Shown: positions 42,569 through 62,101 of the stretch, piece after piece
Layout: every line of letters begins with the position of its first letter
Numbering within the stretch: position 1 is the first letter of the stretch
Assembly: GCA_020073185.1 (NCBI GenBank)
Contig: JAIQFT010000004.1
Span: 1 to 64,000 of the forward strand
Direction: 5' to 3'
DNA from: Terriglobia bacterium
Lineage (GTDB): Bacteria > Acidobacteriota > Terriglobia > Terriglobales > Acidobacteriaceae
DNA length: 64,000 bases
Notes under the pieces: model-generated
The model's input: only the letters and a program-made list of their open reading frames with translations
What the model was told of the DNA's origin: nothing
Databases searched by the model: none
Translations under genes and position numbers: made by a program

Positions 42569-42577
42569 CCGTTCTCC

Positions 42578-45701: not shown

Positions 45702-47471
45702 TTAGTCTTCCTCGCTTGAACTGACCATGAAGAACTTCTTTTTCGGCTTGGCCATGTTTTCCGAAGCCAACGCAAACGCCATAATCATTGCAACCACTCC
45801 GTCAATCTTCTCTCGGTTCCTACCCTTGTCCGGCATGATCAGGTTGCCAGCCGGGTAATACTTCCACCGAAGGTTTGCCACCTGCCAGCGGAGTACCGGG
45901 TTGTGGTCGTGCGCGATCTCTTTCCGGTCAACTTTCAACATCCAGTCACGACAGGGGCCGCTCATCTTGACGGGCCGCTGCGGAAAGACTTCGCCCTTCT
46001 TGTCGTTGGGAAATCCCTCTTCTTCCAAGACTCCCCACAGGGCCGCGCAGTGACTTTCGTCGTATGCAATCTTCTGGAGGTCAAACTGCTTGTTGATTTC
46101 CACGATCCGCCGCGCTATGTAGCGATGGTCAACAAAGTCCCCTGGTGTCTTCTCCAGGAAGCCCGCCTCTGCCCATCGATCGTACGGAACACGGTCCCGC
46201 TTCACCCGCTGGGCAATGTTCGTCTCCGGAACCCAGAAAAAGGGGAGAACGCGATACCTTTCGCCCTGTAATGAAGGTGGAAATACTAGAAACAAGGCAG
46301 ACGTGTCATTCCTGAAGGCAGGGTCTAGGGCCGCGTAGCAGCGAAGGCCCGCCATTTCCGTGATGGTTTGCTCGCGAAGCGTCTTCGGATTCGGGTACTT
46401 TTCAATCGGTACACGACAGTTCTGATCCCAAATCTCGATGTCTATGGCCGGATCGTCGGCCTCTTGCGACCAGAGATTCAGGCAAAACCGCTTGAAAATG
46501 CCGATTTCGCCCGGTTTTCCCTGACTTTCCTTGAACTCCGAGCGTAATTTGTCAATTCCGAACAACCCACCTAGCGACGGATTGCTCTTAGGCCAGTTAG
46601 CCTCGTCCTTCCAGTCATCGTCTTGGTCCAGGACATACAGGAAAGGTAGGAACTCGTCATCCGTGGTGTCGTTAGCCGGGTCCAAGCACTTTAGGCCGTG
46701 CTCATACTCTTCCCAGCAAGGCAGAGTGCTGTTAGCAGAGTCGCCCGCCGTGCTGATTTCAATCATCAGGGGTTGCTTGCGGGTCCGCCCGCCGTACCGG
46801 AGGACTGAGTACAGGCCCGATTTTGTCTTCCAACGGTGTAGCTCATCTATGATGCAGTGGGAGACGATGGCACCATCTTCCGAGTCCGCATCGCGGGCCA
46901 TTACGCTTAGGCGCGAGCCGGTCTCGCCCACATACAAGGCCAGGACTTGCTTGTCGTCGGTCTTCCCGCCCGATTGCCCGATAGCTCCCTTGAGTTCGGG
47001 ACTCTTTTTGCGCATCAGCACAGCCTCGGTGAAGCAGACGCGGGCTTGCTTCTTCGTCGTGGCTGCCATAAACACGCGGGCCGACAATTCGCCATCCGCG
47101 ACCAGGCAGTACAAGGCGAGAGCCGCTGCCAGGGCCGTTTTCCCGTTCTTCTTGGCCACTAACAGCAGAGTTCTCCTGTATCTCCTGGTGCCATCCTTCC
47201 TTTTCCAGCCAAAAAGCAGTGCTAGCCAGGTCTGTTCCCAGGGAAGCAGCACAATCGGATCATCGGATTCGGAGGCTACAATGAAGGTTTCTATGAAGCG
47301 GATGGGGTTTAGGGCAGCCTCTAGGTCGAAATAGAACGGGAAGTCTGGCTCTCCGACACGCCCTAGGTCAGCTAAATGACGCTGCAAGACACGTTTTATC
47401 TGCCTAGAGGCAGCGATCTGGCCAGACAGAATGCCTTCGATGTAGGAATCTACTGCGGGGTTGATGGCCAT
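45702..47471 (-). CDS. Terminase large subunit
   Basis: 589 residues of the HK97/Terminase_1 type. The ATPase has Walker A VAKKNGKT (about residues 105-112) and Walker B HCIIDELHRW (about 208-217); the C-terminal nuclease half shows the conserved acidic strand GLRCYAALDPAFRNDTSALFL, the region DRVPYDRWAEAG, and a late ADDHNP-like region. It packages DNA into the prohead. It follows the capsid gene, from which it is separated by a terminator hairpin (47491-47520). Confidence 0.92.
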   Translation of the reverse strand: MAINPAVDSYIEGILSGQIAASRQIKRVLQRHLADLGRVGEPDFPFYFDLEAALNPIRFIETFIVASESDDPIVLLPWEQTWLALLFGWKRKDGTRRYRRTLLLVAKKNGKTALAAALALYCLVADGELSARVFMAATTKKQARVCFTEAVLMRKKSPELKGAIGQSGGKTDDKQVLALYVGETGSRLSVMARDADSEDGAIVSHCIIDELHRWKTKSGLYSVLRYGGRTRKQPLMIEISTAGDSANSTLPCWEEYEHGLKCLDPANDTTDDEFLPFLYVLDQDDDWKDEANWPKSNPSLGGLFGIDKLRSEFKESQGKPGEIGIFKRFCLNLWSQEADDPAIDIEIWDQNCRVPIEKYPNPKTLREQTITEMAGLRCYAALDPAFRNDTSALFLVFPPSLQGERYRVLPFFWVPETNIAQRVKRDRVPYDRWAEAGFLEKTPGDFVDHRYIARRIVEINKQFDLQKIAYDESHCAALWGVLEEEGFPNDKKGEVFPQRPVKMSGPCRDWMLKVDRKEIAHDHNPVLRWQVANLRWKYYPAGNLIMPDKGRNREKIDGVVAMIMAFALASENMAKPKKKFFMVSSSEED

Positions 47472-47490
47472 AAAACCTGATACTGCAAAA

Positions 47491-47520
47491 GGAAAAGGCC
47501 GCCCGGTTTAGAGCGGCCCT
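47491..47520 (-). terminator. Terminator between capsid and large terminase genes
   Basis: GGCCGC (47497-47502) pairs with GCGGCC (47513-47518) across a 10-nt loop; on the minus strand it is followed by TTTTCCTTTT. It would end most capsid transcripts before the terminase gene. Confidence 0.7.
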
Positions 47521-47541
47521 TTGTTAGTTGTGGTGAAGGTC

Positions 47542-48741
47542 TTAGCCAGTGATGGTCCAGATCTTCACAGCCTCCGACACGCGGATGCGCGAGTCGGTAC
47601 GGCGGTATCCCAGGACGTCCAGGATGCCGTTCTTGATGGAGGTCTGGTCAAGCACCTTCACGTTGATGGCCGGGCCGCCACGGTCCCCGATTACCATGCA
47701 CGTCTTGAAGTCGCCGAAAGCGACCGCGCCTTCTACCGCAGGAGATGCGCTGTAAACAGGCATCGCGCTGGAGTAGTAGACTTTGAATCCGTGCAGGAAA
47801 TCTTCACGCCCGGTGGAGACCCAGTAGGGGTTGAACTGGTTGGCAGCGAGTTGCTTTTTGCGCATCGCGATACCAGTTTGGCGGTTCATCAGCCAGTTGG
47901 CGTTCGGGTAGTAAGCCGCACGCAGTTCGCCGGTCAGGTCCAGAGCCGCCTCACCGTACTCATCCATCGCGACAGACTGACCTGCGTCAGCGCCGTTCAG
48001 GATGCCCATCGGCTCGCCAGAACCGGAACCGTTGATGAACTTGTCCTCTTCGTAGTTCTGGATGCCGCGAGACAAATCGGCAGTCAAGAACGGCTGAAGG
48101 GCAGGCACATCCTGCGCCAGTTCCAGGGTTACGGGGACAACCACGCCCGCCATGTAGGCGGTCAGGGTGACCTGCGTGAAGCTAGGAGCTACGCCCGCGA
48201 AGGCGTGATCCGTACCACGCGATTCGGCCTTGGCAGCAGCCTGGGTCTTGGTCAACTGAGCAGGCAACTTGATGTCGTTGTCGGTCGGGATGACCAGGGC
48301 CAGCTGGCGAATTGCCAGTTCCTGCGGGGCCAGGGGCACGATGGTGCCGTCAACAGTGATAGGAACTAGGTAGCCACCGTCGGTGGTGCCACCCTCGCCT
48401 AGTGCGCTGTTGGACGTGTTCTTGAAGCCACCATTCTTGAAGGAGCCGTAGAAAGCCTCGGCATACTCTTCGGAGAAAGTCTGCTTGGAGCCGAACTTCT
48501 TCTTGGAGCCGTCGTTGACTACGGGCTGGCTGGTGGGTGTGTTGAGTTCCGCCTTGCCCTTGGCAATGGCGTCGATGCGAGCGACCGTCTGGTCGAGGTC
48601 AGCGATTTCGGCAGTGGCTGCCTTGAAATCGGCTTCCTCACCGTCGGTGAGCTTGCGCTTTGCAGTCTCGGCTGTGTTGAGGATGGCTTCCTGCTTGTTC
48701 AACAGGTGGGCCTTGCGTTGCTGGAGTTCTTTGCGATCCAT
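47542..48741 (-). CDS. Major capsid protein (HK97 fold)
   Basis: 399 residues. The first 100 are a helical delta/scaffold domain (LQQRKAHLLNKQEAILNTAETAKRKLTDGEEADFKAATAEIADLDQ), followed by the capsid domain with the usual ALGEGGTTDGGYLVPITVDGTIVPLA entry and the E-loop and P-domain stretches (FINGSGSGEPMGILNG, WLMNRQTGIAMRKKQL, LDVLGYRRTDSRIRV). Cleavage of the first domain by the ClpP-type protease is expected near residue 100-120. Unusually, the gene lies upstream of the large terminase. Confidence 0.92.
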   Translation of the reverse strand: MDRKELQQRKAHLLNKQEAILNTAETAKRKLTDGEEADFKAATAEIADLDQTVARIDAIAKGKAELNTPTSQPVVNDGSKKKFGSKQTFSEEYAEAFYGSFKNGGFKNTSNSALGEGGTTDGGYLVPITVDGTIVPLAPQELAIRQLALVIPTDNDIKLPAQLTKTQAAAKAESRGTDHAFAGVAPSFTQVTLTAYMAGVVVPVTLELAQDVPALQPFLTADLSRGIQNYEEDKFINGSGSGEPMGILNGADAGQSVAMDEYGEAALDLTGELRAAYYPNANWLMNRQTGIAMRKKQLAANQFNPYWVSTGREDFLHGFKVYYSSAMPVYSASPAVEGAVAFGDFKTCMVIGDRGGPAINVKVLDQTSIKNGILDVLGYRRTDSRIRVSEAVKIWTITG

Positions 48742-48863
48742 ATGAGCCTCTAAGTGAGAATTTGTTTGCCCAGTCCTGGATCGCTCGAAAGAGTGTGATT
48801 GCGGACGGACGCGCCTCGCGCACCTGTCCTCGAAAGAGTCAGGCTTGTTTGGCCAATCTACTT

Positions 48864-48879
48864 AGGGGTAGGAAGTCGG
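48864..48879 (-). promoter_or_regulatory. Element shared by the capsid and tail tube gene leaders (copy 2)
   Basis: On the minus strand CCGACTTCCTACCCCT, 15 of 16 identical to the copy at 40567-40582, same orientation relative to its gene. A weaker relative is at 25583-25595. Confidence 0.45.
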
Positions 48880-48990
48880 TTAATTAGCGAACCACCTGGA
48901 GCCGATGGTCACCACTGTTCCAGACTGTCTTCATAGGCCACATGGAAGAGGGGCGGATAGAGGTTTTAGCTGTCTTACGGGTTGGTGGGG

Positions 48991-48996
48991 TATAAT
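48991..48996 (+). promoter_or_regulatory. -10 box TATAAT of a leaderless-type promoter
   Basis: Perfect TATAAT ends 6 nt before the ATG at 49003, which would put the transcription start at or next to the start codon. No good -35 is seen. The following ACATGGCACGC matches the sequence after TATGAT at 56165. Confidence 0.5.
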
Positions 48997-49002
48997 GAGG
49001 AC

Positions 49003-49209
49003 ATGGCACGCCTAAAAGCAAGTGAAGTGGTCGTTAAGTTGGCAGAATTGATTAACCTGTATGGTAACTGGCCGGTAGTCACTGGCTCTGTAAATCCGGT
49101 TACTGACTGTGTAAGGTGGGTCGAAGACGTCATTGCAGCTAATGATCCCTCTGATCAGCGGTCGTTCATTGACGCTAATAAGGTGTTTTACGTCAAGTTT
49201 GTCGATTAA
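49003..49209 (+). CDS. Small phage protein, rightward cargo gene
   Basis: 68 residues starting MARLKASEVVVKLAELINLYGNWPVV, a helical repeat of the type often seen in small phage proteins (K..E+...L..LI..YG...V). It lies alone on the plus strand between the capsid and small terminase genes. Chosen start 49003 directly after a TATAAT; no Shine-Dalgarno. Function unknown. Confidence 0.6.
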   Translation: MARLKASEVVVKLAELINLYGNWPVVTGSVNPVTDCVRWVEDVIAANDPSDQRSFIDANKVFYVKFVD

Positions 49210-49220
49210 CCGGCCCGGCC

Positions 49221-49640
49221 CTAGTTAGCTAGGTGCGCGGGCAGGGGCGGGCCGGGCTTCTTCTTTAGGAACTCCGCGAGCCTGTCTTTTGGCTTCGCAT
49301 CAACGGCAATCTTGGCCCGGTCGCTCGGTGTCATACCGAACTTAGCACCCAGGGCAATCATCTGTGTGCGCTCTGCGGTCTTGATGGTGCCCTCCGCCTC
49401 CTTGGCAAAGAGCCGCACCAGGGCCAGGACATAAGGGAGGTCCCAGGCCGTGGCGACGTCGGGCGGACAGTGCTTCAGGAACCACCTGTACCACTTCTTC
49501 TGGAGCTTGGTGAAGTCTTCGGGTGGCTCGGCAGGGAGCGAGCCTTCGGGCTTTAGCTCGTTAGTGCGCTCACGCTCGGGATGGTTCAAGAATGCGCCGC
49601 GAGCTTCCAAGATTGCTGTCGGTGTTGATGGTCGGCCCAT
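49221..49640 (-). CDS. Terminase small subunit (P27 family)
   Basis: 139 residues with the P27 terminase-small pattern (RGRPSTPTAILEARGAFLNHP-like start, then LPAEPPEDFTKLQKKWYRWFLK and FGMTPSDRAKIAVDAKPKDRLAEFL). It recognises the packaging site and loads the large subunit. It is preceded by the HNH gene, a frequent pairing in HK97-type phages. No Shine-Dalgarno is evident at the ATG. Confidence 0.88.
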   Translation of the reverse strand: MGRPSTPTAILEARGAFLNHPERERTNELKPEGSLPAEPPEDFTKLQKKWYRWFLKHCPPDVATAWDLPYVLALVRLFAKEAEGTIKTAERTQMIALGAKFGMTPSDRAKIAVDAKPKDRLAEFLKKKPGPPLPAHLAN

Positions 49641-49710
49641 ATAAGTACATTAGAAAGTGGCTTTTTTCGGCGGCATACGCAAAAATGAGCAGCGTAGGCT
49701 CTGAAGACAA

Positions 49711-50142
49711 TCACTTACAAGGAATTGACCCCACGCCGGGTACACGTGCCAAGTGCCGCTCCTCCTTGGCAGTCTTGGCATTGTGGTCACTGACGCACAT
49801 CCCCTGTAGGTTCGCTTCGTCGTAGAATGAGTTCACGTCTCCGTTGTGCAAGGAGACCCAGACCTTGGCAGCGATCTTGTGGTCCGCCACTGTACTGGCC
49901 CGGTAGCCGCACGCTACACACAGGGGATCACGAGCGAAGACGCGCTGCCGAGTCCTTGCCCAGCGTTCGGTCTGGTACTCCGCCCGGTAGGGATCGTTCA
50001 CTCTGCGGTCCTTGTCGTATCCTCGACTATGCGCGACGCTCTCCCGGTCCCTGACCTCTTGGTGGCGAGGACAATATGGACCGGCAGATGTTGTGGAGCA
50101 TCCTGCACGCAGGCATCGTCTTGCTGGTGCCTTAGGCATCAC
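49711..50142 (-). CDS. HNH endonuclease, packaging-associated
   Basis: 143 residues. N-terminal zinc-type cysteines (CLRAGCSTTSAGPYCPRHQ) and an HNH core with CVACGYRASTVADHKIAAKVW and a C-terminal NLQGMCVSDHNAKTAKEE. HNH proteins beside terminase genes stimulate cos cleavage by the terminase in HK97-type phages. The ATG overlaps the stop of the upstream gene in an ATGA arrangement. Confidence 0.88.
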   Translation of the reverse strand: MMPKAPARRCLRAGCSTTSAGPYCPRHQEVRDRESVAHSRGYDKDRRVNDPYRAEYQTERWARTRQRVFARDPLCVACGYRASTVADHKIAAKVWVSLHNGDVNSFYDEANLQGMCVSDHNAKTAKEERHLARVPGVGSIPCK

Positions 50143-50522
50143 TTCTTGTCCTTGCGAGTGTCGTCTACCTTGAACTGCTTAGCAGAGTCCGCCAGCAGTT
50201 GCGCCCGGACCTCATGGTCGCCCGGCTTCTGCTTGGGCATCTTCTTGAACTCTGCCTCTGTGCGTATGACGAAGTTGCCTTCGCCATCGTCGTCCAGGAC
50301 TAGACCCTTGCCAACGGATAGCGTCTTAACGACCACCATGTGGCTGGTCTTTTGAGAATAGGCGTGTGGGTTTGTCTCCAGCGCGGTTAGGGCCGCGTCT
50401 ATAACATCCAGGTTGTGGTCGTTAACGACGCGGACGCATGTTCGTCCTTTGACCAGCCCGTAGTTCTGGCTCTTGTTTGGGTTATCCCCTACGATGTCCT
50501 GGGGCTGTCTACCGTATGCCAT
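50139..50522 (-). CDS. Phage hypothetical protein
   Basis: 127 residues, no signal or membrane segment, with a beta-rich middle (THMVVVKTLSVGKGLVLDDDGEGNFVIRTEAEF) and a charged Lys-rich C-terminus. It overlaps the glycosyltransferase gene by 14 bp and the HNH gene by 4 bp, so it is translated in the same operon. No family recognised. Confidence 0.6.
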   Translation of the reverse strand: MAYGRQPQDIVGDNPNKSQNYGLVKGRTCVRVVNDHNLDVIDAALTALETNPHAYSQKTSHMVVVKTLSVGKGLVLDDDGEGNFVIRTEAEFKKMPKQKPGDHEVRAQLLADSAKQFKVDDTRKDKK

Positions 50523-51192
50523 TGCTCTCCTCCTCTCGGAGTGCTGCTAGGAAGGCCGGTGGCAGTTGGTCGTGTGGCATCGCCGGGAAGCCTTTGTTTC
50601 CCAGGGGTGGTTGCCACGTGTTGTACTGGTGCGCCCGCGCTACCAGCAGCCCGCCATCGTGATAGGTCACCAGGCAGCCTTGCTTGGCAGCTGCGGAAGC
50701 GAAGGCGGTATCCGCTCCACGGCATACCTCCGCAAAGCGATTCTTCCGCCAGAACTCGCGACGGAAGAACTGCGACGATCCGCAGGCATACTCGCCTTTG
50801 CCCGAGTAGGTGTAGCGGTACGTTCTGCCATCACGCATGTCGTAGTAGGGGATGGTGTGGAAGCCGGTTACGCTAGCCGTACCTAATTGACGCAACTGCT
50901 CCTCTAGCCGGTTTTCGGCTGACCAATCGTCGTCATCCCAGGCACACAGGAACTCTCCCACGGACTGCTCGCAAGCGAAGTTCATAAGCCAGCCGTGGCC
51001 CGGTGTTGGCGTCCGGAAGTAGCGGATGTGGGGATGGAATGGCACAAGATGCTTGATAGGCTCGCGACCGTTGTCCACGACGATCAGTTCGCGGTTCTCG
51101 TAGGTCTGCCGCGTGAAGCAATTGATGGCCATCCCGATCAGCGCGGGCCGTTCCTTTGTGGGCATGATGCACGAGATAATAGGATTGCTCAT
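50509..51192 (-). CDS. Family 2 glycosyltransferase-like protein
   Basis: 227 residues of GT-A fold: N-terminal strand IISCIMPTKERPALIGMAINCFTRQTYENRELIVVDNG, a DDDD metal site in FLCAWDDDDWSAENRLEEQL (about residues 85-95), and a later acceptor region (GSSQFFRREFWRKNRFAEVCRGADTAFASAA). GT2 enzymes move sugars from nucleotide donors; in phages such enzymes often glycosylate modified bases or surface structures. The start at 51192 begins the catalytic fold; the frame is open to 51276. It is downstream of the amidotransferase-GNAT cluster. Confidence 0.8.
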   Translation of the reverse strand: MSNPIISCIMPTKERPALIGMAINCFTRQTYENRELIVVDNGREPIKHLVPFHPHIRYFRTPTPGHGWLMNFACEQSVGEFLCAWDDDDWSAENRLEEQLRQLGTASVTGFHTIPYYDMRDGRTYRYTYSGKGEYACGSSQFFRREFWRKNRFAEVCRGADTAFASAAAKQGCLVTYHDGGLLVARAHQYNTWQPPLGNKGFPAMPHDQLPPAFLAALREEESNGIR

Positions 51193-51387
51193 TTCTGTAT
51201 ACCGTGTTCCGGATTTCTCCAAGCAACCAGGGGAACGTCGGTCTTGCGTCGGGCTATCGCCTTGCAAACGTCGCACACGGTCTGCATGAATAAGTGGCCA
51301 GGCGAGTTACTTCGGATGGGGTCATGGGGATAGATACCGGGCCAGGTAGGAGAATCGGGGTTGGCGGGAAACTTTATTTTTGGTGTT
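51193..51387. other. Intergenic sequence upstream of the glycosyltransferase gene
   Basis: No gene seen. A stretch at 51340-51357 (minus strand CCGATTCTCCTACCTGG) weakly resembles the element at 40567 and 48864 and could be a promoter for the gene starting at 51192. Confidence 0.3.
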
Positions 51388-51533
51388 CGGGCCGCTCGGG
51401 GAGGAGACGGGACATGGCGTTCCCGTGAAAGACCCTAGCGGCCCGGACATGACGTGGATGCCCAATAACAGGCAAGGGAGTTAACCCTGCGCGGACGTCC
51501 TTGCGGATAGTCCCATCCACGAGTCAGCGCCAT
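51388..51533. ncRNA. Candidate structured RNA with nested hairpins and pseudoknot potential
   Basis: CGGGCCGCT (51388-51396) pairs perfectly with AGCGGCCCG (51437-51445); inside it ACGGGA (51407-51412) pairs with TCCCGT (51421-51426); the loop CATGGCG (51413-51419) is complementary to CGCCATG (51527-51533) beyond the second helix; CGTGGATG (51453-51460) pairs with CATCCACG (51514-51521), enclosing GGGAGTTAACCC and GGACGTCC palindromes. No ORF lies here. The expressed strand is unknown, since stems exist on both; surrounding genes run leftwards. Confidence 0.5.
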
Positions 51534-51566
51534 GAGTTGTATGAGTACCGGAAAGTCTTTTTCTTT

Positions 51567-51637
51567 GGAGCGGTCGGGAGGACTTGAACCTCCATCTCCG
51601 GGGTGGTGCCCCAGTATCCGACTTAGACGACGTCCGC
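51567..51637 (-). tRNA. Degenerate tRNA-like element, anticodon uncertain
   Basis: Seven-bp acceptor GCGGACG/CGACCGC with one A-A mismatch, a perfect T-arm GGAGG-TTCAAGT-CCTCC, and an anticodon-type stem CTGGG/CCCGG around GCACCAC. The D-arm is poor and position 33 would be C instead of U, so it is either a very divergent tRNA (ACC, Gly) or a tRNA-derived sequence. Its 5' 15 nt overlap the end and stop codon of the GNAT gene. Confidence 0.4.
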
Positions 51638-52180
51638 AATATTGCCCACCATGTTGAACGGTGGCTTCAAGAGAATGGCGTATAGTTCGTCCCTGCCCAG
51701 CACGTGCGGGTCAAGCGCAGCGCGGGCCTTCTTGGGGATGCCCTCGGGCCAGTTGCGCGTGATCAACGGCTCGTCAACCACCAGGTGCCCTTGCTTCTCC
51801 ACTCCCCAGAACTTGTGGCCGAGACCCCGGTGTAGGTAGTAGCCCAGGTCGCTCTGTACCAGGCTCTTCACGCGAAACATGCCGGCCATCAGTGCCTCTT
51901 GCATTACGTGGTTGTATAACAGCGTCGCGTAGCCGTTGCGCCGGTACGCTGGCAGAGTGTAGGCCAGATAGAAATTGGCATACTTTCCCCAGCCATCTGC
52001 CTTCTTGCCTTTGGCGAAGTAGGTTGCGTGAAAACTGACCGGCTCGCCATCTACGGCTAGCTGGTGCAGCCCGTCCTCGGCATACAGAGCGTAGATGCCC
52101 CAGTTCTTAGCCCACTCGCGGTCTTGCCGTGGTGATACCGCGTACCACTGTTCCTTGTTTAGCTGCGTGATTGCGATCAT
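51623..52180 (-). CDS. GNAT-family acetyltransferase
   Basis: 185 residues with the GNAT core: strand with NFYLAYTLPAYRRNGYATLLYNHVMQEAL, where YRRNGYA is the acetyl-CoA pyrophosphate-binding loop (R-x-x-G-x-A), followed by the usual beta-5/helix (FRVKSLVQSDLGYYLHRGLG). The start at 52180 overlaps the upstream stop by 4 bp (ATGA). Phage GNATs include the Mu Mom DNA modifier; context with an amidotransferase and HhH protein fits DNA modification, but the substrate is unproven. Confidence 0.75.
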   Translation of the reverse strand: MIAITQLNKEQWYAVSPRQDREWAKNWGIYALYAEDGLHQLAVDGEPVSFHATYFAKGKKADGWGKYANFYLAYTLPAYRRNGYATLLYNHVMQEALMAGMFRVKSLVQSDLGYYLHRGLGHKFWGVEKQGHLVVDEPLITRNWPEGIPKKARAALDPHVLGRDELYAILLKPPFNMVGNIADVV

Positions 52181-53100
52181 AGTAAGTTGACCAGTTGGCC
52201 CGTCCGCTTGTAGTGGTCTAGCCACTCCTCGCGGATGCCCTTCCTCGATAGATACTGTGCCGGGAACACTTCGTCGCGAATCTGCCATAGCGTTTCCCAG
52301 TGAACTCCGCACGACAACGGAAAGGCAGCGATCTTGTTAATCTCCTCCGCTTGGCGGTCTAAGTAGAAGCCGGGGTAGACGCGGCCCTCCACCAGTTTGC
52401 GGAAGGCGCAGCCGACGGTCTCCATATACATCGCATCAACCGGGACGTCCGGATACCGGGTACGCAGCACGGGCATTAAATTTCCAACTATCTCTGCTGC
52501 CTCCTTTGCCGAGACGGCATCCTTGCCTATTAGGTAGGCGTATCCTGTGTGCGATTCCTCCTCCGCGATGTTGATATAGGCATCCGGCTCTAATTTCAAC
52601 CCGACGCAGCGGACCAGGGTTTCCACGTAGGCTAGGCCCGCGTGCCGCCCGATTCCTTTGACGCGGCGGATCCGCTTGAATGCTTCGCGGGCCGTAGTTG
52701 CCCCAGCCAGGTACTCCGCTTGAGGCCGGGGATGTTGCATAGTCTGTAGGTAGGACTCCACAAGAACCTCGAACTGGAACTTGGCCGGGTCGTACTTGGA
52801 GGTACGGGCATTCCAGCGTCGGTCTTTTTGAAACAGCGCAAGCCGCTGCTCTGGCGTGAAGTGACGAAACCAGCGCGACAGCCGTTCCCGGTCCACCTTC
52901 TCGTAATCAGGGAACTCCTGCATCACGAGAAACACTGAGCCAATGTGGTAGAACGCGGTGTAAAGGAACGTTGCCCACAGTTGCTGCTCGTGGCTTAGTT
53001 CGTACCGGCGGAAGATTTCGCGCAGCACAGGGAAGGCCGGGTCTATATCCACCCGCATGTAGGTGTTGTAGTAGGCGAAGAATGCGTCTTGGCGGTTCAT
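52177..53100 (-). CDS. HhH/glycosylase-like protein, possible amino acid:DNA transferase (ADDT-like)
   Basis: 307 residues. The N-terminal helical part (YELSHEQQLWATFLYTAFYHIGSVFLVMQEFPDYE) resembles, from memory, phage proteins annotated as amino acid:DNA transferases, a predicted DNA hypermodification family related to DNA glycosylases; a helix-hairpin-helix-like VKGIGRHAGLAYVETLVRC is at about residues 145-163, followed by a stretch with conserved Asp/Glu (EPDAYINIAEEESHTGYAYLIG). ATGA overlaps couple it to both the amidotransferase and the GNAT gene. A profile search is needed to confirm the family. Confidence 0.5.
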   Translation of the reverse strand: MNRQDAFFAYYNTYMRVDIDPAFPVLREIFRRYELSHEQQLWATFLYTAFYHIGSVFLVMQEFPDYEKVDRERLSRWFRHFTPEQRLALFQKDRRWNARTSKYDPAKFQFEVLVESYLQTMQHPRPQAEYLAGATTAREAFKRIRRVKGIGRHAGLAYVETLVRCVGLKLEPDAYINIAEEESHTGYAYLIGKDAVSAKEAAEIVGNLMPVLRTRYPDVPVDAMYMETVGCAFRKLVEGRVYPGFYLDRQAEEINKIAAFPLSCGVHWETLWQIRDEVFPAQYLSRKGIREEWLDHYKRTGQLVNLL

Positions 53101-53792
53101 AGGCTGTATGTCCTCAATGGGTTAAGCGGACCACAGGCTCCCTCAACGTCGGCAGCAAGAGCCGCCCGCCGAAAGATGTCCGCAGTAGAGCAGAAGCCGG
53201 TTAGCCCCAGTGAGGGGACCGAGAATTTGTAGAGCGGGCGAACGTCGTCACGGATTCCCACCAGGTGCCTTTGGTGGTCTAGGATGACCAGGGCGAAGAC
53301 GGGGGTGGCGATCTGGTCCGTTTCCGTAAGACCCTTGCGAACGGCTCCGGCCAGGTCGTTGCCGAGATACTTGGCGATTTTGAGCAGCAGAATCTCGCTG
53401 TCGTTTGCCGTTGCTAAGTTGGACAGCCCATACTGTGGCCCATATTGTGCCGGGGTAGCTTGCGAGATGATGCCGTTGTGGGCTATGGCGATCAGCCCGT
53501 TTTCTAGGGGCTGGTTATTCCGCTTGTCGGTGTGGTCCCCGCTGGTGGAGTAGCGGTTATGGAACAGGCCAACCGAGCTAGGCTCCTCGAAGATGCTAGG
53601 GTAGCGGGCGATGAACTCCGCGGCAGAGACCGATTCCTTCACCGTGCGCAAGGTGTCGCTGTCCGGGCTGATGTCGGTGTAGCCGGTAGCGTGAAGCCCG
53701 CGTATGCTGCTCTCTAGAAGCATCTGCCGCAGGAAGGCTCCTACCAGGCCAGGTTGTTCCCCGTTATATCGGTATCCGATGATTCCACACAT
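53097..53792 (-). CDS. Class II glutamine amidotransferase (Ntn-type)
   Basis: 231 residues starting MCGIIGYRYNG, so Cys2 becomes the N-terminal nucleophile after Met removal. Further family features: GLFHNRYSTSGDHTDKRNNQP (glutamine-binding Arg) and IAIAHNGIIS (oxyanion Asn-Gly), then NDSEILLLKIAKYL. The domain hydrolyses glutamine to supply ammonia. There is no synthetase domain, so it must serve a partner, most simply the next genes to which it is coupled by ATGA overlap. Confidence 0.88.
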   Translation of the reverse strand: MCGIIGYRYNGEQPGLVGAFLRQMLLESSIRGLHATGYTDISPDSDTLRTVKESVSAAEFIARYPSIFEEPSSVGLFHNRYSTSGDHTDKRNNQPLENGLIAIAHNGIISQATPAQYGPQYGLSNLATANDSEILLLKIAKYLGNDLAGAVRKGLTETDQIATPVFALVILDHQRHLVGIRDDVRPLYKFSVPSLGLTGFCSTADIFRRAALAADVEGACGPLNPLRTYSL

Positions 53793-53795
53793 TGC

Positions 53796-54011
53796 TTATG
53801 CCTCGTGATCGCTTCCGCGCAGGATGATGTCCGTGGTAGGGACGCCCTCAACCACATAGACGTTGGGTTCGCCCGGCTCTACTTCGCCCGCGCACAGCGG
53901 GCACTCCGGGCTTAGGGCCGCCACTACCTGGTCCTGATCGGCGTCCATCTCGTCGTCAGGACAAGCGAACAGAATCTCGCCCTGGTGACCACAATCGAAT
54001 AAGACGTTCAT
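53796..54011 (-). CDS. Small cysteine-containing protein
   Basis: 71 residues starting MNVLFDCGHQGEILFACPDDE, with later CPLC: a possible four-cysteine/histidine zinc site (Cys7, His9, Cys17, and Cys46/Cys49 of CPLC). An excellent Shine-Dalgarno (GGAGG, 4 nt before the ATG) selects 54011 over the longer open frame to 54158. It overlaps the upstream gene by ATGA and is 3 bp from the amidotransferase gene. Confidence 0.65.
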   Translation of the reverse strand: MNVLFDCGHQGEILFACPDDEMDADQDQVVAALSPECPLCAGEVEPGEPNVYVVEGVPTTDIILRGSDHEA

Positions 54012-54268
54012 AGAACCTCCGTATCCGGCATGGTTGCCTGTTCGTTTTCTGCACGTTTCAGCCAGTAGTAACAGCGAATCCAGGCTCGCGAACGGCTGCT
54101 GGTCCACCCGTTCCACATGTTCTGGCAATAGCTGCGCAGTTCCAGTGGTAAGGCCCACCAGTGGTTCATGCAGAAGGCATGTGCCCGCTGCTTGCTATTG
54201 CCACAGATTTGACAGGTGGTGCTGCGGGCCACGTTATCCGCCATGCGTTGCAATTCTTGTTCGGTCAT
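54008..54268 (-). CDS. Small zinc-ribbon-like protein
   Basis: 86 residues. A CQICGNSKQRAHAFCMNHW motif at about residues 19-37 has C-x2-C and C-x2-H spacing typical of a zinc knuckle; the remainder is an aromatic-rich helix (ALPLELRSYCQNMWNGW). Strong Shine-Dalgarno GGAGGAG precedes the ATG. It is coupled by ATGA to the genes on both sides. Function unknown. Confidence 0.65.
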   Translation of the reverse strand: MTEQELQRMADNVARSTTCQICGNSKQRAHAFCMNHWWALPLELRSYCQNMWNGWTSSRSRAWIRCYYWLKRAENEQATMPDTEVL

Positions 54269-54414
54269 ACCGCTCCTCCAGGGGCGGGGTTAGCCCGCCC
54301 GTCTTCAATACGACACATTAAGCAATCGCAGCTGGGCACGTAGCCACAGCGGCAAGGCTGTCCACAGGTGCACAAAGGCTTACGCGGTTTAGGGTTAGGG
54401 TTAGTAGTTGCCAT
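54265..54414 (-). CDS. Short cysteine-rich protein
   Basis: A 49-residue gene below the size of common ORF cut-offs. Its product has a Pro/Asn/Lys-rich start (MATTNPNPKPRKPL) and seven cysteines within 20 residues (CTCG, CRCG, CDCLMC), a likely metal-binding knot. GGAGG lies 9 nt before the ATG at 54414 and the stop overlaps the next start as ATGA, both of which support it as a real gene. No family recognised. Confidence 0.65.
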   Translation of the reverse strand: MATTNPNPKPRKPLCTCGQPCRCGYVPSCDCLMCRIEDGRANPAPGGAV

Positions 54415-54492
54415 GATTTTTGGCCTCCTAGCCCTTATTACTGACCGCCCCCCCGTTTTCCGAATATCCCAGCAAATTTATTTTTGCCCGGT

Positions 54493-55383
54493 TCAGGGCC
54501 GGGCCGTAGCAACCAGGTGGGTGGCTGTTGGGTCTGGTGCTGCGTTACGGCAGGTCCGCTGGCCCGATGGACTGCCGTACCCGCAGCCGCATAGCCCGCA
54601 GAAAAACCTGCCGTTGCTCGCCTTGATAGACCAGTCGTGACCGTTGGCTGGAACGGGGGGCTGCGGAATGGGGGGGAGCAGCGTAGCTGCGACGGGTAAA
54701 CAGGAAATAGCTGCCGGGGGGTCCGGGGGCGAGAAGTCCCCGGTGGGGGGTTCGGGGGGCAAAGCCCCCTGAGGGGGTTCGGGGGTTTCCCCCGTCTGTC
54801 CTTCTGTGTCTCGGTCGTCGTCTTTCACAGTAGGCAGTACACTACGTGGGGCAGAAAAGGCAGTATCGGGCTTGTGGACGCCCGATATAGCATCGGAGAC
54901 GCCCGATTTGGATACACTGCACGCCCGATTAAGCCCCTCGGGGGCGGGCAACCCGCTGGCTACCCGCTGGCAACCCGCGTCACTTGGGAAGATGTCTTCG
55001 ATATCGGGCGCGTCGGGCTTCTGGACGCCCGATTTGGAAATATCCAGGGTCACGAAGTACTCCTTGGCGAGACCCTTCCCGTTGCTCCTCTTGCCCCGGT
55101 CCCAGTCCACGATCTCTAGGTTTTGGAGCCGCACCAGACGCCGGTATGCGCCCTTGGCGTCGGACAGGTGGCAATAGGCCGCTAGCTGATCTTGGGAGGC
55201 TACAGTGGTGAACTGAACCCAGCCGTTCCGCACGTCATCCGCCTCAAGGAACGTGTTGCTGTGAACGTATAGGGCGAGCACCATCTCGCGCAGATCGGAC
55301 GGGACGCCGGTGAGGTTGGCAGAGATTCGCCGGAGCAACCACTTGGTGTTGACGTGTTCACGGGGTTTCTTCTTGGGTGCCAT
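54493..55383 (-). CDS. Winged-helix protein, likely replication initiator (lambda O-like organisation)
   Basis: 296 residues. An N-terminal winged-helix-like domain (WLLRRISANLTGVPSDLREMVLALYVHSNTFL, then LAAYCHLSDAKGAYRRLVRLQNLEIV) is followed by a linker with repeated KSGV-type units, a Pro-rich stretch and a C-terminal zinc-like CGLCGCGYG. The middle of the gene carries iterons (54865-55033), as lambda O does. The start at 55383 follows AGGAGAGG by 5 nt; the frame is open to 55440. No helicase or primase motif is seen. A role in initiation is inference from the gene layout. Confidence 0.55.
   Translation of the reverse strand: MAPKKKPREHVNTKWLLRRISANLTGVPSDLREMVLALYVHSNTFLEADDVRNGWVQFTTVASQDQLAAYCHLSDAKGAYRRLVRLQNLEIVDWDRGKRSNGKGLAKEYFVTLDISKSGVQKPDAPDIEDIFPSDAGCQRVASGLPAPEGLNRACSVSKSGVSDAISGVHKPDTAFSAPRSVLPTVKDDDRDTEGQTGETPEPPQGALPPEPPTGDFSPPDPPAAISCLPVAATLLPPIPQPPVPANGHDWSIKASNGRFFCGLCGCGYGSPSGQRTCRNAAPDPTATHLVATARP
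54865..55033. repeat. Iteron-like direct repeats, candidate prophage replication origin
   Basis: ACGCCCGAT occurs at 54878-54886, 54899-54907, 54921-54929 and 55025-55033, the first three spaced 21-22 bp; inverted ATCGGGC copies are at 54865-54871 and 55003-55009. Three 11-bp tandem copies of ACCCGCTGGC type lie at 54951-54979. The regular helical spacing fits binding by an initiator. Confidence 0.6.
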
Positions 55384-55532
55384 TGTGCCTCTCCTAAGGC
55401 AGTTGCGGTCGGGGAGCGGTGTAGGAGCACCGCTCCCCAAGCCCGCATTGAAGTGTCAGCCCGCGTAGCCGACACAACCTAATACCGCCCCGGACAGATT
55501 CCTCCGGTTTAATCTACCGGGGCCGGGTTCAG

Positions 55533-55949
55533 CTAACCTTGGAATTTCTTCCGCCGCGCTGGCCTCGGTTCTCCTGTTCCACCCTTCTCCAGCCTCCGCC
55601 GCGCCTTCCGCTCTTTCAGTGTTGCCTTCGCTATCCAGAGGACGGCACCAGCGTCCACTGCTGTCGTCGGGTGTCGCGGGATGTTCAATGTGTATCGGTC
55701 TCTGGCAGACGTGATACCTATTGGAGCAGGCACCGTTGCGGTTATTCGGCGGATCAACCCCTTCAACTTCGCGTCGGACTTCGCGTTGAAGTAGGAGCAA
55801 ACGGCATCGTAATCCTCCTGTCCGATCCACGTGGTTCCACGGGCCAATCGCATGTGGTCATTCCGCTTGGGTCGGATGTTTTGTTTCCAATTCCAGCTCC
55901 ACTCCTTTTCAGTTATCTGTGCCATATTCTTTTCAGTTATCTGTGTCAT
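55533..55949 (-). CDS. Hypothetical early phage protein
   Basis: 138 residues, basic (many Arg/Lys, C-terminus RKARRRLEKGGTGEPRPARRKKF), with a central mixed helix/strand part. Start at 55949 follows a perfect AAAGGAGG 10 nt upstream. A 21-bp duplicated sequence at 55905-55925 and 55929-55949 gives the N-terminus two MxQITEK units, each with an ATG. No family recognised; nucleic acid binding is plausible from the charge. Confidence 0.6.
   Translation of the reverse strand: MTQITEKNMAQITEKEWSWNWKQNIRPKRNDHMRLARGTTWIGQEDYDAVCSYFNAKSDAKLKGLIRRITATVPAPIGITSARDRYTLNIPRHPTTAVDAGAVLWIAKATLKERKARRRLEKGGTGEPRPARRKKFQG
55905..55949. repeat. 24-bp-period tandem duplication at a start codon
   Basis: Two copies of CTTTTCAGTTATCTGTG plus (C/T)CAT, 20 of 21 identical, offset 24 bp and in frame (eight codons). 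Each supplies an ATG on the minus strand. Confidence 0.7.
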
Positions 55950-56139
55950 TTTCAAAGAGCCTCCTTTGGCCCCGGCATGCAAATACCGAGAGCCGAAGGT
56001 TTCCCGGAATTCGCAGTCGAAATTATTTTCGTGGACAGCCGAAAGGTAGAAGTCTTGGGGGGGAGACTTCTAAGACTAAGGGTGAGGAAGAGCGCGTCAG
56101 CTTTTCGGCTCTTGCTGGACAGTCTGTTCCCAGCGCGAC
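55950..56139. other. Noncoding region between the divergent early genes
   Basis: No gene supported. This is where a lysis-lysogeny switch would be expected. Apart from the Shine-Dalgarno of the leftward gene, no clear operator set was found. Confidence 0.3.
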
Positions 56140-56170
56140 CTGACAAAGTCTGAAGGAAGTAGGGTATGAT
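56140..56170 (+). promoter_or_regulatory. Rightward promoter with near-consensus -10
   Basis: CTGACA at 56140-56145 and TATGAT at 56165-56170 with a 19-bp spacer (18 bp if TGACAA is the -35). The sequence after it (ACATGGCACGC) matches that after TATAAT at 48991. Drives the small gene at 56211. Confidence 0.5.
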
Positions 56171-56210
56171 CGACACATGGCACGCAAGCAATGTGGGGAG
56201 GAGGAGGGGT

Positions 56211-56396
56211 ATGAACAGTGTTTTGAAGATTGGGGACATCGTGCAGTACGGGACGGATTGGTACAAAGTGGTCGGTTTTGACGAAAAAACCAAGCAATGG
56301 ATTTTGGAGCCTGAAGACACCGCTGATCCTGTGCAAGCACTCGCGGACCGAATCTGGGTAGATCCGAAAGACCTCGCTTCAAGCACGCGGAGGTAG
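56211..56396 (+). CDS. Small hypothetical protein
   Basis: 61 residues starting MNSVLKIGDIVQYGTDWYKVVGFDEKTKQWILE, a small SH3-like barrel pattern (GD.V.Y....Y.V.G.D). A strong Shine-Dalgarno (GGAGGAGG) 5-6 nt upstream selects 56211. A 34-codon leaderless ORF at 56176 (MARKQCGEEEG...) overlaps the start in another frame and may be an artefact. Function unknown. Confidence 0.55.
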   Translation: MNSVLKIGDIVQYGTDWYKVVGFDEKTKQWILEPEDTADPVQALADRIWVDPKDLASSTRR

Positions 56397-56401
56397 CGTG
56401 C

Positions 56402-56407
56402 TACAAT
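56402..56407 (+). promoter_or_regulatory. -10 box TACAAT just before the ATG at 56416
   Basis: TACAAT ends 8 nt before the start codon, so the transcript would be leaderless or nearly so. No clear -35. Confidence 0.4.
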
Positions 56408-56415
56408 TCCGCGCC

Positions 56416-56688
56416 ATGCTAATCGAAAAGATCGCTAAAGAGATTCGCGCAGAAATCGACCGCCTACATGCGGCCCTCGCAGCATTAACCGGGAACAGCA
56501 CGAAGCCAAGAGGCAGGCGCAAGTGGACCATGTCCGCAGCCGCCCGCAAGAAGATTAGTCTCGCGCAGAAGGCACGGTGGGCGAAGAGAGCGGCGAGACC
56601 GAAGCACAGAATGTCGGCAGCGGCCCGCAAAAAGATCGCGGCTGCGATGCGGGCAAGGTGGGCAAAGGTCAAGGCTGGGAAGAAGTAG
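56416..56688 (+). CDS. Small basic DNA-binding-like protein
   Basis: 90 residues, strongly basic. An N-terminal helix (IEKIAKEIRAEIDRLHAALAAL) is followed by two copies of a motif S-A-A-A-R-K-K-I...A..ARWAK (about residues 40-60 and 66-86), typical of small nucleoid-type or NUMOD-like DNA-binding proteins. The start at 56416 lies just past a -10 box. Function unknown. Confidence 0.6.
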   Translation: MLIEKIAKEIRAEIDRLHAALAALTGNSTKPRGRRKWTMSAAARKKISLAQKARWAKRAARPKHRMSAAARKKIAAAMRARWAKVKAGKK

Positions 56689-56862
56689 CTTGGTGAATCC
56701 GAGGCGGTGTCATCCGCTAACTACAGCCCCTTCACATTAGAGCTGATCCCAAGACCGAAACCCGCCCGTTGTCAGATCATCTTCGAGCGCCTGGAATGCA
56801 CCCCTGAGCGTCAGGGCTCGCTTCGCGCCGGGCCACCTAGCCACACACCACGCTATATCATG
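56689..56862. other. Spacer upstream of the methyltransferase module
   Basis: No gene supported; an open frame at 56707-56907 has no Shine-Dalgarno and no recognisable product. AT content rises sharply at its right end. Confidence 0.3.
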
Positions 56863-56892
56863 TTGATAATTATACAGTTAAAATGCTATGTG
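56863..56892 (+). promoter_or_regulatory. Possible promoter of the regulator/methyltransferase pair
   Basis: TTGATA (56863-56868) with CTATGT or TATGTG at 56886-56892 after 17-18 bp, in an AT-rich stretch directly upstream of an operator-like palindrome. Moderate match only. Confidence 0.35.
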
Positions 56893-56895
56893 CCT

Positions 56896-56920
56896 TATGT
56901 AATGTAAGTTATATTACATA
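56896..56920. promoter_or_regulatory. Operator-like palindrome before the regulator start
   Basis: TATGTAAT (56896-56903) and ATTACATA (56913-56920) form a perfect 8-bp inverted repeat with 9-nt spacing, ending one base before the GTG at 56922. Likely binding site of the ribbon-helix-helix product. Confidence 0.55.
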
Positions 56921-56921
56921 C

Positions 56922-57122
56922 GTGCCAATCGGAGAGTCCGGGCGGGTCGTGCTGGAGATTGATCCCCTGCTAAAGAGGAAGCTCTATTCCGCGCTCGCTC
57001 TGGAGCATATGAGCCTGAAGGCCTGGTTCATAGGAAAAGCTGAGGAGTATGTGCAAGCTCAGCAGCAACCGACCCTGTTCGGCTCCGCGGCACCGAATGC
57101 TCAGGTCGACACGAAAGCATGA
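56922..57122 (+). CDS. Ribbon-helix-helix regulator
   Basis: 66 residues from a GTG start. GRVVLEIDPLLKRKLYSALALEHMSLKAWFIGKAEEYV has the RHH pattern of a strand with alternating hydrophobics, helix, turn and helix (Arc/CopG type). The stop overlaps the methyltransferase ATG at 57119 as ATGA. The palindrome directly upstream suggests autoregulation, as with controller proteins of restriction-modification systems. The frame is open from 56883, but the upstream part overlaps the operator. Confidence 0.65.
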   Translation: MPIGESGRVVLEIDPLLKRKLYSALALEHMSLKAWFIGKAEEYVQAQQQPTLFGSAAPNAQVDTKA

Positions 57123-58168: not shown

Positions 58169-58190
58169 CCATCAGCGCAAGAAACAGAGG

Positions 58191-61246: not shown

Positions 61247-61641
61247 ACCAACAGCAACTTCAGATCATTTCCTACAGACTCGAACTCCTTTTCTGCCGTA
61301 ACAAACGTGGCCTTATGCGTCTTGGCGGTTGCTGCTCCTATGCAGCTCAGATAGGGTAATTTGTACTGGGCACTCAGTTCTGCTGCCAACTTGGTCACGG
61401 CACTGTCCACGTCTACAAGTTCAATGGGCAATTGCTCGAGTTCTTCGATCTTTCGATTGGCAGCCTCGCGCCCGGTAACGCGACAGATGGCCGAATATAT
61501 TTCTCCCCAGTTAACAACTGACACTTGTAAGAACTGTTGGCTGCTGGCAGCTTTTCCGAGGAGATCCTCGACCACTTCCGCTCCGCCACGATCTTCCAGA
61601 AAGGCGATAACCGCAGATGCGTCCAGCATGTATCGCTTCAT
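61243..61641 (-). CDS. VapC-type toxin (PIN-domain ribonuclease)
   Basis: 132 residues with the PIN acidic set: MLDASAVIAFLEDRGG (Asp7 region), VNWGEIYS (Glu), and SCIGAATAKTHKATFVTAEKEF with the later acidic cluster. VapC toxins cut specific RNAs. ATGA overlaps couple it to the antitoxin upstream and, unusually, to the GHKL ATPase downstream. The last acidic position of the classical four is replaced in part (SCIGAATAK where D is common), so activity should be tested. Confidence 0.82.
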   Translation of the reverse strand: MKRYMLDASAVIAFLEDRGGAEVVEDLLGKAASSQQFLQVSVVNWGEIYSAICRVTGREAANRKIEELEQLPIELVDVDSAVTKLAAELSAQYKLPYLSCIGAATAKTHKATFVTAEKEFESVGNDLKLLLV

Positions 61642-61874: not shown

Positions 61875-61921
61875 CTCAATTTGGTCCGTCGTGTACTGGA
61901 CTAGCGTACCGATGGACACGT

Positions 61922-61949: not shown

Positions 61950-62101
61950 TTTTGTTGATTGGCGGAACAGCTCAGGGGGTCAGCCCATGGCGGGAAGTCT
62001 GAGGACGATCAAAAGGCGAAAATTATATTGCGTGCTAACGATTGTGGCGGGAATTCTTGTGGTGCGGCACCTGAAGACTGCCGATGACGGAAGCACCTTC
62101 C

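What the first reader, a model, noticed from the sequence alone, without database searches (positions are those of the whole stretch)
50509..53792. Candidate DNA hypermodification cluster: GATase-II, HhH/ADDT-like protein, GNAT, GT2
A stand-alone class II amidotransferase, a protein with an HhH-like stretch resembling the predicted amino acid:DNA transferase family, and a GNAT are joined by ATGA overlaps, with a GT2 downstream. Predicted phage base-hypermodification pathways combine such enzymes (glycosylase-fold transferase, amidotransferase, acetyltransferase, glycosyltransferase). The set would add an amino or acyl group, and perhaps a sugar, to a base. No hydroxymethylpyrimidine synthase or kinase is visible, so the substrate base would be unmodified or supplied by the host.
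Basis: partly seen in the sequence, partly recalled or inferred. Interest (0 to 1): 0.7.

Follow-up and report, generated by a model that had tools for sequence, protein, structure and literature searches.

The report
Prophage DNA-base hypermodification gene trio
Three linked genes in this bacterial prophage match the core of a virus pathway thought to decorate DNA bases, yet the enzymes that normally start the pathway were not found here.

Summary
A class II amidotransferase (53097-53792), an ADDT-family protein (52177-53100) and a GNAT (51623-52180) are joined by two ATGA overlaps inside a 39.3-kb prophage. Profiles built from other viruses, without the window, find all three (ADDT 1e-59, GATase 1.5e-43, GNAT 4.6e-11). 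I held 145 loci with both GATase and ADDT; the commonest orders are TET/JBP dioxygenase, GATase, (amidoligase), GNAT, ADDT, P-loop kinase. In loci fetched by ADDT alone, GATase lies beside 53 of 54 ADDTs of this clade with enough flank and 0 of 16 of the sister clade. One contig fuses ADDT to GNAT. I infer that the GATase feeds ammonia to ADDT, which puts an amine on an activated 5-hydroxymethyl pyrimidine, probably of thymine, and that GNAT acylates it. GT2 does not recur with the set. The window is odd: no TET/JBP, kinase, hydroxymethylase or radical SAM gene was found in the prophage, whereas each of the 136 related loci that can be judged has TET/JBP, an HMUDK-type kinase or a radical SAM gene. 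The starting base may come from elsewhere, an enzyme may be unrecognised, or the trio is a remnant. No chemistry was tested; structure prediction failed.

The parts
53097..53792 (-). Stand-alone class II glutamine amidotransferase (Ntn hydrolase), N-terminal MCGIIG
   Evidence: Pfam GATase_6 3.2e-9; leave-window-out cassette profile 1.5e-43; keeps 29 of 31 columns conserved in at least 90% of 119 relatives, including C2, R80, N106, G107, D131
52177..53100 (-). ADDT-family (amino acid:DNA transferase, PF18724) protein, divergent long-branch relative of the GATase-linked clade
   Evidence: PF18724 27.0 bits vs cut-off 26.2; leave-window-out profile 1e-59, 200.6 bits, against 98.3 bits for the clade without GATase; keeps 43 of 61 conserved columns of 114 relatives; tree
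51623..52180 (-). GNAT acyltransferase, RxxGxA acyl-CoA motif (RRNGYA)
   Evidence: Acetyltransf_1 25.4 bits against 41.0 bits, 4.6e-11 with the leave-window-out cassette GNAT profile; pairwise 27% over 130 residues with the L011 cassette GNAT but no real match to the L007 one; keeps 6 of 10 conserved columns
53796..54011 (-). Small 71-aa cysteine-containing protein, ATGA overlap with the gene upstream, 3 bp before GATase; operon neighbour of unknown role
   Evidence: read from sequence; no homologue among the ORFs of at least 50 aa kept in the related loci
54008..54268 (-). Small 86-aa cysteine-rich protein at the head of the packed run; operon neighbour of unknown role
   Evidence: weak zinc-finger resemblance only, E 0.06-0.07
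50509..51192 (-). GT2 glycosyltransferase, downstream neighbour, probably not part of the pathway
   Evidence: Pfam 1.3e-16; best named models are colanic-acid and teichuronic-acid type GT2s, all far below cut-off; does not recur with the cassette
24510..63861 (.). Prophage carrying the trio: 21-bp direct repeat 24510-24530 / 63841-63861 at the 3' end of tRNA-Leu, integrase 62541-63740; taken as complete from these ends and its head and tail genes

Best explanation
The trio is the second half of an ADDT-type DNA base hypermodification pathway carried by a temperate phage. Proposed working: (1) the class II GATase hydrolyses glutamine; (2) the ammonia goes to the ADDT protein, which attacks an activated (phosphorylated) 5-hydroxymethyl pyrimidine in DNA, most likely hydroxymethyl-uracil from thymine, and leaves a 5-aminomethyl base; (3) the GNAT acylates the new amine from an acyl-CoA. 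The first two steps (hydroxylation and phosphorylation) were not found in this prophage and must come from elsewhere or from unrecognised genes. Family membership, gene linkage and operon structure are shown; target base, ammonia transfer, acylation and activity are inferred.
For: Leave-window-out profiles recover all three genes. 145 loci hold both GATase and ADDT (79 fetched by ADDT, 66 by GATase; 65 and 58 distinct ADDT sets); TET/JBP in 126, kinase in 132, GNAT in 108, amidoligase in 50. In loci fetched by ADDT, GATase lies within 3.5 kb of 53 of 54 ADDTs of this clade with adequate flanks (44 of 45 distinct proteins) and 0 of 16 of the sister clade; the miss, L125, ends at a contig end. 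Kinase is near 51 of the 54, GNAT 39, amidoligase 17. Near-obligate GATase with optional GNAT and amidoligase is why ammonia supply to ADDT is preferred. Conversely 67 of 76 GATase-fetched loci hold an ADDT; the 9 others have under 2 kb downstream of the GATase. ADDT-GNAT fusion in L124. The family profile matches solved chains deposited as 'Amino acid:DNA transferase domain-containing protein' (25qc, 4.8e-15) and 'Glycinyltransferase' (8z2m, 7.6e-10). Thymine as target: no C5-cytosine methylase found in 29 of 29 long cassette contigs, 27 with TET, and five TET-less loci, two of them one contig, have the 5-hmdU DNA kinase helical domain (Pfam on three; phmmer on five). GATase keeps the positions that I recall as the GlmS glutamine site.
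Against: No TET/JBP, kinase, hydroxymethylase, HMUDK or radical SAM gene was found in the prophage, while every related cassette that can be judged has TET/JBP, HMUDK or a radical SAM gene. The window ADDT is on a long branch (1.55) between the two clades, scores only just above the Pfam cut-off, changes 18 of 61 conserved columns, is missed by the Pfam model in a whole-genome search, and on its own finds neither solved ADDT chain. The nearest named solved relative is called a glycinyltransferase, which points to an amino acid rather than ammonia. No chemistry was tested.
Confidence: 0.5

Rival explanations
1. The trio is a remnant or non-functional acquisition: transferase, amidotransferase and acyltransferase are kept, but without hydroxylase and kinase the phage DNA is not modified.
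For: No first-step enzyme found in the prophage; long branch and 18 of 61 altered conserved ADDT columns.
Against: All three frames are open and overlap by ATGA and show codon-position G+C like the terminase and portal genes; GATase keeps 29 of 31 conserved columns.
Confidence: 0.25
2. The GATase is not an ammonia donor but a trimming hydrolase: ADDT attaches an amino acid such as glutamine or a gamma-glutamyl amine, and the Ntn hydrolase clips it, leaving an amine for the GNAT. Stand-alone relatives such as EgtC (recalled) and Dug3 (seen only in a cited title) work on gamma-glutamyl compounds.
For: Stand-alone GATase without a synthetase domain; amidoligase in 50 of 145 loci; the nearest named solved ADDT relative is called a glycinyltransferase.
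Against: 95 of 145 loci have no amidoligase call, yet the GATase stays; it keeps positions recalled as the glutamine-binding set.
Confidence: 0.2
3. The divergent ADDT acts on an unmodified base or on another substrate, so no hydroxylase or kinase is needed.
For: Among cassettes with enough flank only this one lacks TET/JBP, HMUDK and radical SAM genes alike; its ADDT lies on a long branch outside the rest of the GATase-linked clade.
Against: Core positions (D18, D20, P21, G151, E227, T228, C231) are kept, which argues for the ancestral substrate.
Confidence: 0.12
4. The three genes are unrelated neighbours, for example metabolic or surface-modification genes next to GT2.
For: GT2 and small Cys-rich genes flank them; the trio is absent from the 4 related prophage stretches of 16-19 kb examined.
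Against: Conserved synteny in many viral contigs and an ADDT-GNAT fusion.
Confidence: 0.03

Closest known systems
TET/JBP - GATase - (amidoligase) - GNAT - ADDT - P-loop kinase cassettes of uncultured phages (e.g. L071, L136)
   Same: Related GATase, ADDT and GNAT, tightly packed on one strand
   Different: No TET/JBP, ParB, amidoligase or kinase found in the window; its order GATase-ADDT-GNAT is seen in 3 of the 145 loci (L007, L051, L052), besides the L124 fusion; ADDT identity 18-33% to 53 relatives
ADDT genes of cultured actinophages (Mycobacterium phage Reprobate, Gordonia phage LittleMunchkin, Microbacterium phage Kozie)
   Same: ADDT relatives at 24-27% identity; Pfam PF18724 confirmed for Reprobate and LittleMunchkin
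   Different: TET/JBP present but below the curated cut-off, Ploopntkinase3 above it, no GATase_6 match; FAD oxidoreductase-like gene in Reprobate and Kozie; other clade
Thymidine hypermodification pathways of phages (M6, ViI, and Tonitrus with ParB, TET-like, aGPT-PPlase2, 5-hmU DNA kinase: PMC9599517 and PMC11955845, passages seen)
   Same: A transferase thought to act after hydroxymethylation and phosphorylation of thymine (steps recalled)
   Different: Those enzymes are aGPT-PPlases; the window protein does not match aGPT-PPlase Pfam models at E<=1, and no hydroxymethylase or kinase was found in the phage
Solved chains 8z2m/8z2n 'Glycinyltransferase' and 25qc 'Amino acid:DNA transferase domain-containing protein'
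   Same: Same family by profile (7.6e-10 and 4.8e-15)
   Different: Only names and aligned sequences seen; the window protein alone does not reach them
5-carboxymethylcytosine pathway CmoX/CmoY (PMC12783734, passages seen)
   Same: Some CmoY homologues carry a glutamine-hydrolysing domain in phage base hypermodification
   Different: CmoY is an asparagine-synthetase-like ATP-dependent ligase; no synthetase domain was found in the window GATase

Membership tests
ADDT (PF18724) | Match above the curated gathering score | tested here: met
   27.0 vs 26.2 bits, narrowly; the same model found nothing at E<=0.001 in the six-frame genome search; 200.6 bits with the clade profile built without the window
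ADDT (PF18724) | Invariant residues of the family alignment | tested here: met
   D18, D20, W42, Y51, G151, E227, T228, C231, G244, R275 invariant in 54 sequences including the window; but 18 of 61 columns conserved at 90% in the clade are changed
ADDT (PF18724) | HhH/DNA-glycosylase fold (recalled) | not testable with these tools
ADDT (PF18724) | Amino acid or amine transfer to DNA | not testable with these tools
   Biochemical; relatives only by name of solved chains
TET/JBP-GATase-GNAT-ADDT-kinase cassette | Class II GATase beside the ADDT | tested here: met
TET/JBP-GATase-GNAT-ADDT-kinase cassette | GNAT of the cassette family | tested here: met
   4.6e-11 with the leave-window-out profile; alignment; only 6 of 10 conserved columns kept
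TET/JBP-GATase-GNAT-ADDT-kinase cassette | Hydroxymethyl-making enzyme (TET/JBP or ThyA-like) | tested here: not met
   No TET/JBP (E<=1) or ThyA (E<=0.01) family match in the whole genome; no hit to the cassette TET profile in 665 window ORFs; ThyA-like queries only at E 0.52
TET/JBP-GATase-GNAT-ADDT-kinase cassette | P-loop DNA-base kinase | tested here: not met
   PF18751 gives only weak hits on other contigs, E 0.01-0.7; cassette kinase profile hits only outside the prophage, E 0.0059-0.18
aGPT-PPlase (thymine pyrophosphorylase) | Match to an aGPT-PPlase Pfam model | tested here: not met
   no such match at E<=1
Class II glutamine amidotransferase | N-terminal Cys and glutamine-binding residues | tested here: met
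   C2, R80, N106, G107, D131 kept; their role by recall of GlmS
GNAT acetyltransferase | Acyl-CoA motif R/QxxGxG/A | tested here: met
   RRNGYA, with G83 and A85 among the kept columns; motif recalled

The most novel reading that the evidence does not exclude
A glutamine-dependent DNA-base amination: GATase and ADDT form a two-subunit enzyme that puts ammonia on thymine's C5 carbon and a GNAT caps it, giving an N-acyl-aminomethyl base. In this prophage it runs without its own hydroxylase and kinase, either directly on a canonical base or on DNA prepared by the host or a co-infecting phage.
Probability: 0.15. Interest if true: 0.8.

Novelty: new variant of a known kind. Interest (0 to 1): 0.5.

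Why it matters
I saw none among deposited phages: GATase and ADDT queries matched up to 162 and 376 of 50,697 records, but I compared only listed rows and found no shared record, and nine GATase regions that I fetched had longer GATases (295-560 aa) and no ADDT. An integrated, possibly inducible copy would offer a route to the chemistry, and its missing first steps ask whether an ADDT enzyme can work without an encoded hydroxylase and kinase.

Tried and rejected
GT2 as part of the pathway: rejected, no homologue beside 145 related cassettes by single-sequence search. aGPT-PPlase membership: rejected. Hydroxylase or kinase hidden elsewhere in the window: searched with cassette profiles, HMUDK, HMUD2, ThyA-like and radical SAM queries in 665 ORFs of at least 30 aa, nothing convincing. 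Close relatives of the window's own proteins: none by single-sequence scans of viral contigs; only the window's own genome among 100 relatives and among 396 genomes of the phylum. GNAT in deposited phages: no match at E<=0.01. PADLOC: no match for the trio at E<=0.01. Literature: the 2013 survey, the 2021 TET paper and 'Pathways of thymidine hypermodification' are not held (ids typed from recall or from a reference list); the 2018 paper was not looked up and was seen only as a citation.

Mistakes and limits: the GNAT query was translated one base out of frame and means nothing (searches failed for the same reason; right coordinates from then on). The profiles could include the window itself; they were rebuilt without it. 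One search covered an arbitrary stretch and is not used. The first count of GATase beside ADDT (100 of 102) included loci fetched by GATase, which makes it partly circular; the count used here is restricted to loci fetched by ADDT. The 145 loci contain some contigs fetched twice (e.g. L058/L150, L129/L167) and near-copies, so counts are not independent. ORF starts are mechanical (first start codon), so overlap counts are upper bounds. Family searches over whole genomes can miss divergent members: PF18724 missed the window's own ADDT.
Full report
What is there. On the minus strand a packed run of genes reads: small Cys-rich protein (54008-54268), small Cys-containing protein (53796-54011), class II GATase (53097-53792), ADDT-family protein (52177-53100) and GNAT (51623-52180). 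The GATase-ADDT and ADDT-GNAT junctions are ATGA overlaps. Pfam gives GATase_6 3.2e-9, ADDT 27.0 bits against a cut-off of 26.2, and Acetyltransf_1 1.9e-5. A GT2 gene (50509-51192) follows after 430 bp that hold a tRNA-like element (51569-51637, 35.6 bits, not called by ARAGORN).

Where it is. A 21-bp direct repeat at 24510-24530 and 63841-63861, the latter at the 3' end of tRNA-Leu, with an integrase beside it (62541-63740), bounds a 39.3-kb prophage with terminase, capsid, connector and tail genes. The trio sits upstream of an HNH-like gene and a small terminase gene, both weak Pfam matches below cut-off. Six of 100 relatives, the window's own genome among them, have a TerL relative at E<=1e-30. 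In four stretches of 16-19 kb around such TerL genes, one of them elsewhere in the window's own genome, TerL and HNH aligned in 4 of 4 and TerS in 3 of 4; none held the GATase, ADDT, GNAT, TET, kinase or amidoligase, while two held a ParB-profile match. The trio therefore looks like accessory cargo.

Relatives. In deposited phages a tblastn search with the window ADDT matched 8 records at 23.5-27% identity, among them Mycobacterium phage Reprobate, Gordonia phage LittleMunchkin and Microbacterium phage Kozie. Those three records match TET/JBP below the curated cut-off, match Ploopntkinase3 above it, and do not match GATase_6. Over 38 records with an ADDT relative, 31 match TET/JBP at E<=0.01 (16 over the cut-off), 32 match Ploopntkinase3 (28 over) and 4 match GATase_6 (3 over). 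The six closest viral loci of the first scan (L006-L011) all encode a GATase near the ADDT; the GATase_6 model itself misses two of these six.

Synteny. Of 206 loci held at that point, 145 outside the window's own genome have both GATase and ADDT: TET/JBP in 126, kinase in 132, GNAT in 108, amidoligase in 50, ParB in 63, radical SAM in 5. The commonest orders are TET-GAT-GNAT-ADDT-KIN (36) and TET-GAT-AMLIG-GNAT-ADDT-KIN (34); GATase overlaps or touches the next cassette gene in 139 of 143 cases, with mechanical start codons. 79 of the 145 were fetched by ADDT and 66 by GATase. In the ADDT-fetched loci, with at least 2.5 kb upstream and 1.5 kb downstream, GATase is near the ADDT in 53 of 54 loci of this clade (44 of 45 distinct proteins) and 0 of 16 of the other. 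The miss, L125, has no GATase in the 2.6 kb before its contig ends. Dropped for short flank: 34 loci of this clade (27 with GATase, 7 without) and 9 of the other (0 with). In the same 54, kinase is near 51, TET 42, GNAT 39, ParB 30, amidoligase 17 and radical SAM 5. Of 76 loci fetched by GATase, 67 hold an ADDT; the other 9 have less than 2 kb downstream of the GATase.

Is the window part of this? Profiles built from these loci without the window find the ADDT at 1e-59, the GATase at 1.5e-43 and the GNAT at 4.6e-11 among 665 window ORFs (database size set to 5000). The ADDT scores 200.6 bits with the GATase-linked clade and 98.3 with the other. In an 80-row tree the window lies between the two clades on a long branch (1.55): the 13 rows of the other clade split from all the rest including the window (100/100), and the 66 rows of the GATase-linked clade split from those 13 plus the window (99/89). 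With the other clade as outgroup the window is sister to the GATase-linked rows; the program warns that long branches meet there. The window keeps 43 of 61 ADDT columns, 29 of 31 GATase columns and 6 of 10 GNAT columns conserved in at least 90% of relatives.

What is missing. No TET/JBP match (E<=1) or ThyA match (E<=0.01) in the whole genome and only weak Ploopntkinase3 hits on other contigs; these searches can miss divergent members, as PF18724 missed the window's own ADDT. Cassette TET, ParB, amidoligase and radical SAM profiles find nothing in the window, and the kinase profile finds only weak hits outside the prophage. HMUDK, HMUD2, ThyA-like and radical SAM queries find nothing better than E 0.26. 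By contrast, of the 19 related loci without TET, 5 have a radical SAM gene and 5 have an HMUDK-type kinase (two of these five are one contig; two of the five also have a ThyA-like gene). The other 9 have less than 750 bp on one side and cannot be judged. So each of the 136 loci that can be judged has one of the three. Pfam confirmed HMUDK_hel in L124, L129 and L049, HMUD2 in L124 and Radical_SAM in L051. ThyA family hits lie in the L124 record and, by coordinates that fit, in L049. Whether the radical SAM enzyme makes the starting group is unknown. Among cassettes with enough flank the window is the only one in my set without TET/JBP, HMUDK or radical SAM.

Mechanism. The family profile (54 sequences from both clades and the window) reaches solved chains named 'Amino acid:DNA transferase domain-containing protein' and 'Glycinyltransferase' (4.8e-15 and 7.6e-10); the window protein alone does not. 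Because the GATase is near-obligate for this clade while GNAT and amidoligase are optional, I infer that it supplies ammonia to ADDT and that GNAT acylates the resulting amine. The L124 ADDT-GNAT fusion (ADDT 37-258, GNAT 378-464) supports GNAT acting on the ADDT product; L058 and L150, one contig, show a weaker GNAT signal in their ADDT ORF (1.6e-6). Thymine is the likelier target: no C5-cytosine methylase was found in 29 of 29 long cassette contigs, which may be fragments, and 5-hmdU kinase domains occur in TET-less cassettes. The trimming-enzyme and remnant rivals remain open.

Deposited phages. The window GATase matches 122 records and the L136 GATase 162; an L071 ADDT query matches 376. 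I did not intersect full lists. In the rows listed (up to 60 of each GATase list; 40 and 24 of the ADDT list) no record is shared. Nine GATase regions that I fetched carry GATases of 295-560 aa and no ADDT, GNAT, TET or kinase profile match.

Literature. Seen as passages: PMC12783734 (CmoX/CmoY), PMC8670742 (MetaGPA), PMC11955845 (Tonitrus), PMC9599517, PMC12730594, PMC7824862, PMC10853773, and PMC5512222 with its abstract. Searches listed no paper that I recognised as describing a GATase-ADDT-GNAT cassette; several of these lists were capped. The 2013 computational survey of phage base-modification systems, which may have predicted it, is not held, so I claim no priority for the cassette itself.

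Noticed in passing
57119-58168 (+), 58191-58898 (-), 58877-61246 (-): Prophage module of an N6/N4 DNA methylase (PF01555 3.3e-31; PADLOC type II MTase 5.2e-86), a 235-aa protein without Pfam or PHROG match and a 789-aa protein whose only Pfam match above cut-off is a Big_2 domain; possibly a defence or regulatory set.
   Followed up: partly
61243-61641 (-): PIN-domain protein (5.1e-16) with a small ORF at 61638-61937 that looks AbrB-like by eye: probable toxin-antitoxin pair in the prophage.
   Followed up: no
51569-51637 (-): tRNA-like element (Rfam 35.6 bits, gathering 29) between GNAT and GT2, not called by ARAGORN; perhaps degenerate.
   Followed up: partly
L124:3477-5060: ADDT-GNAT fusion in a TET-less cassette with HMUD2, HMUDK_hel and ThyA-like genes.
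   Followed up: yes
L051:11877-13127, L052:9999-11243, L007:6235-7524, L054:4249-5661, L077:9659-10918: Radical SAM gene in or near GATase-ADDT cassettes without TET; two of them (L051, L052, in Prevotella and Phocaeicola MAG contigs) also have no kinase call. It may make or rearrange the base adduct.
   Followed up: partly
L217 / L221 (G000 contig C39): A second TerL relative (30% identity) in the same genome, probably another prophage, without the trio in the stretch fetched.
   Followed up: partly
47542-48741 (-): Major capsid gene lies between the small and large terminase genes in transcription order, an unusual place as far as I recall.
   Followed up: no
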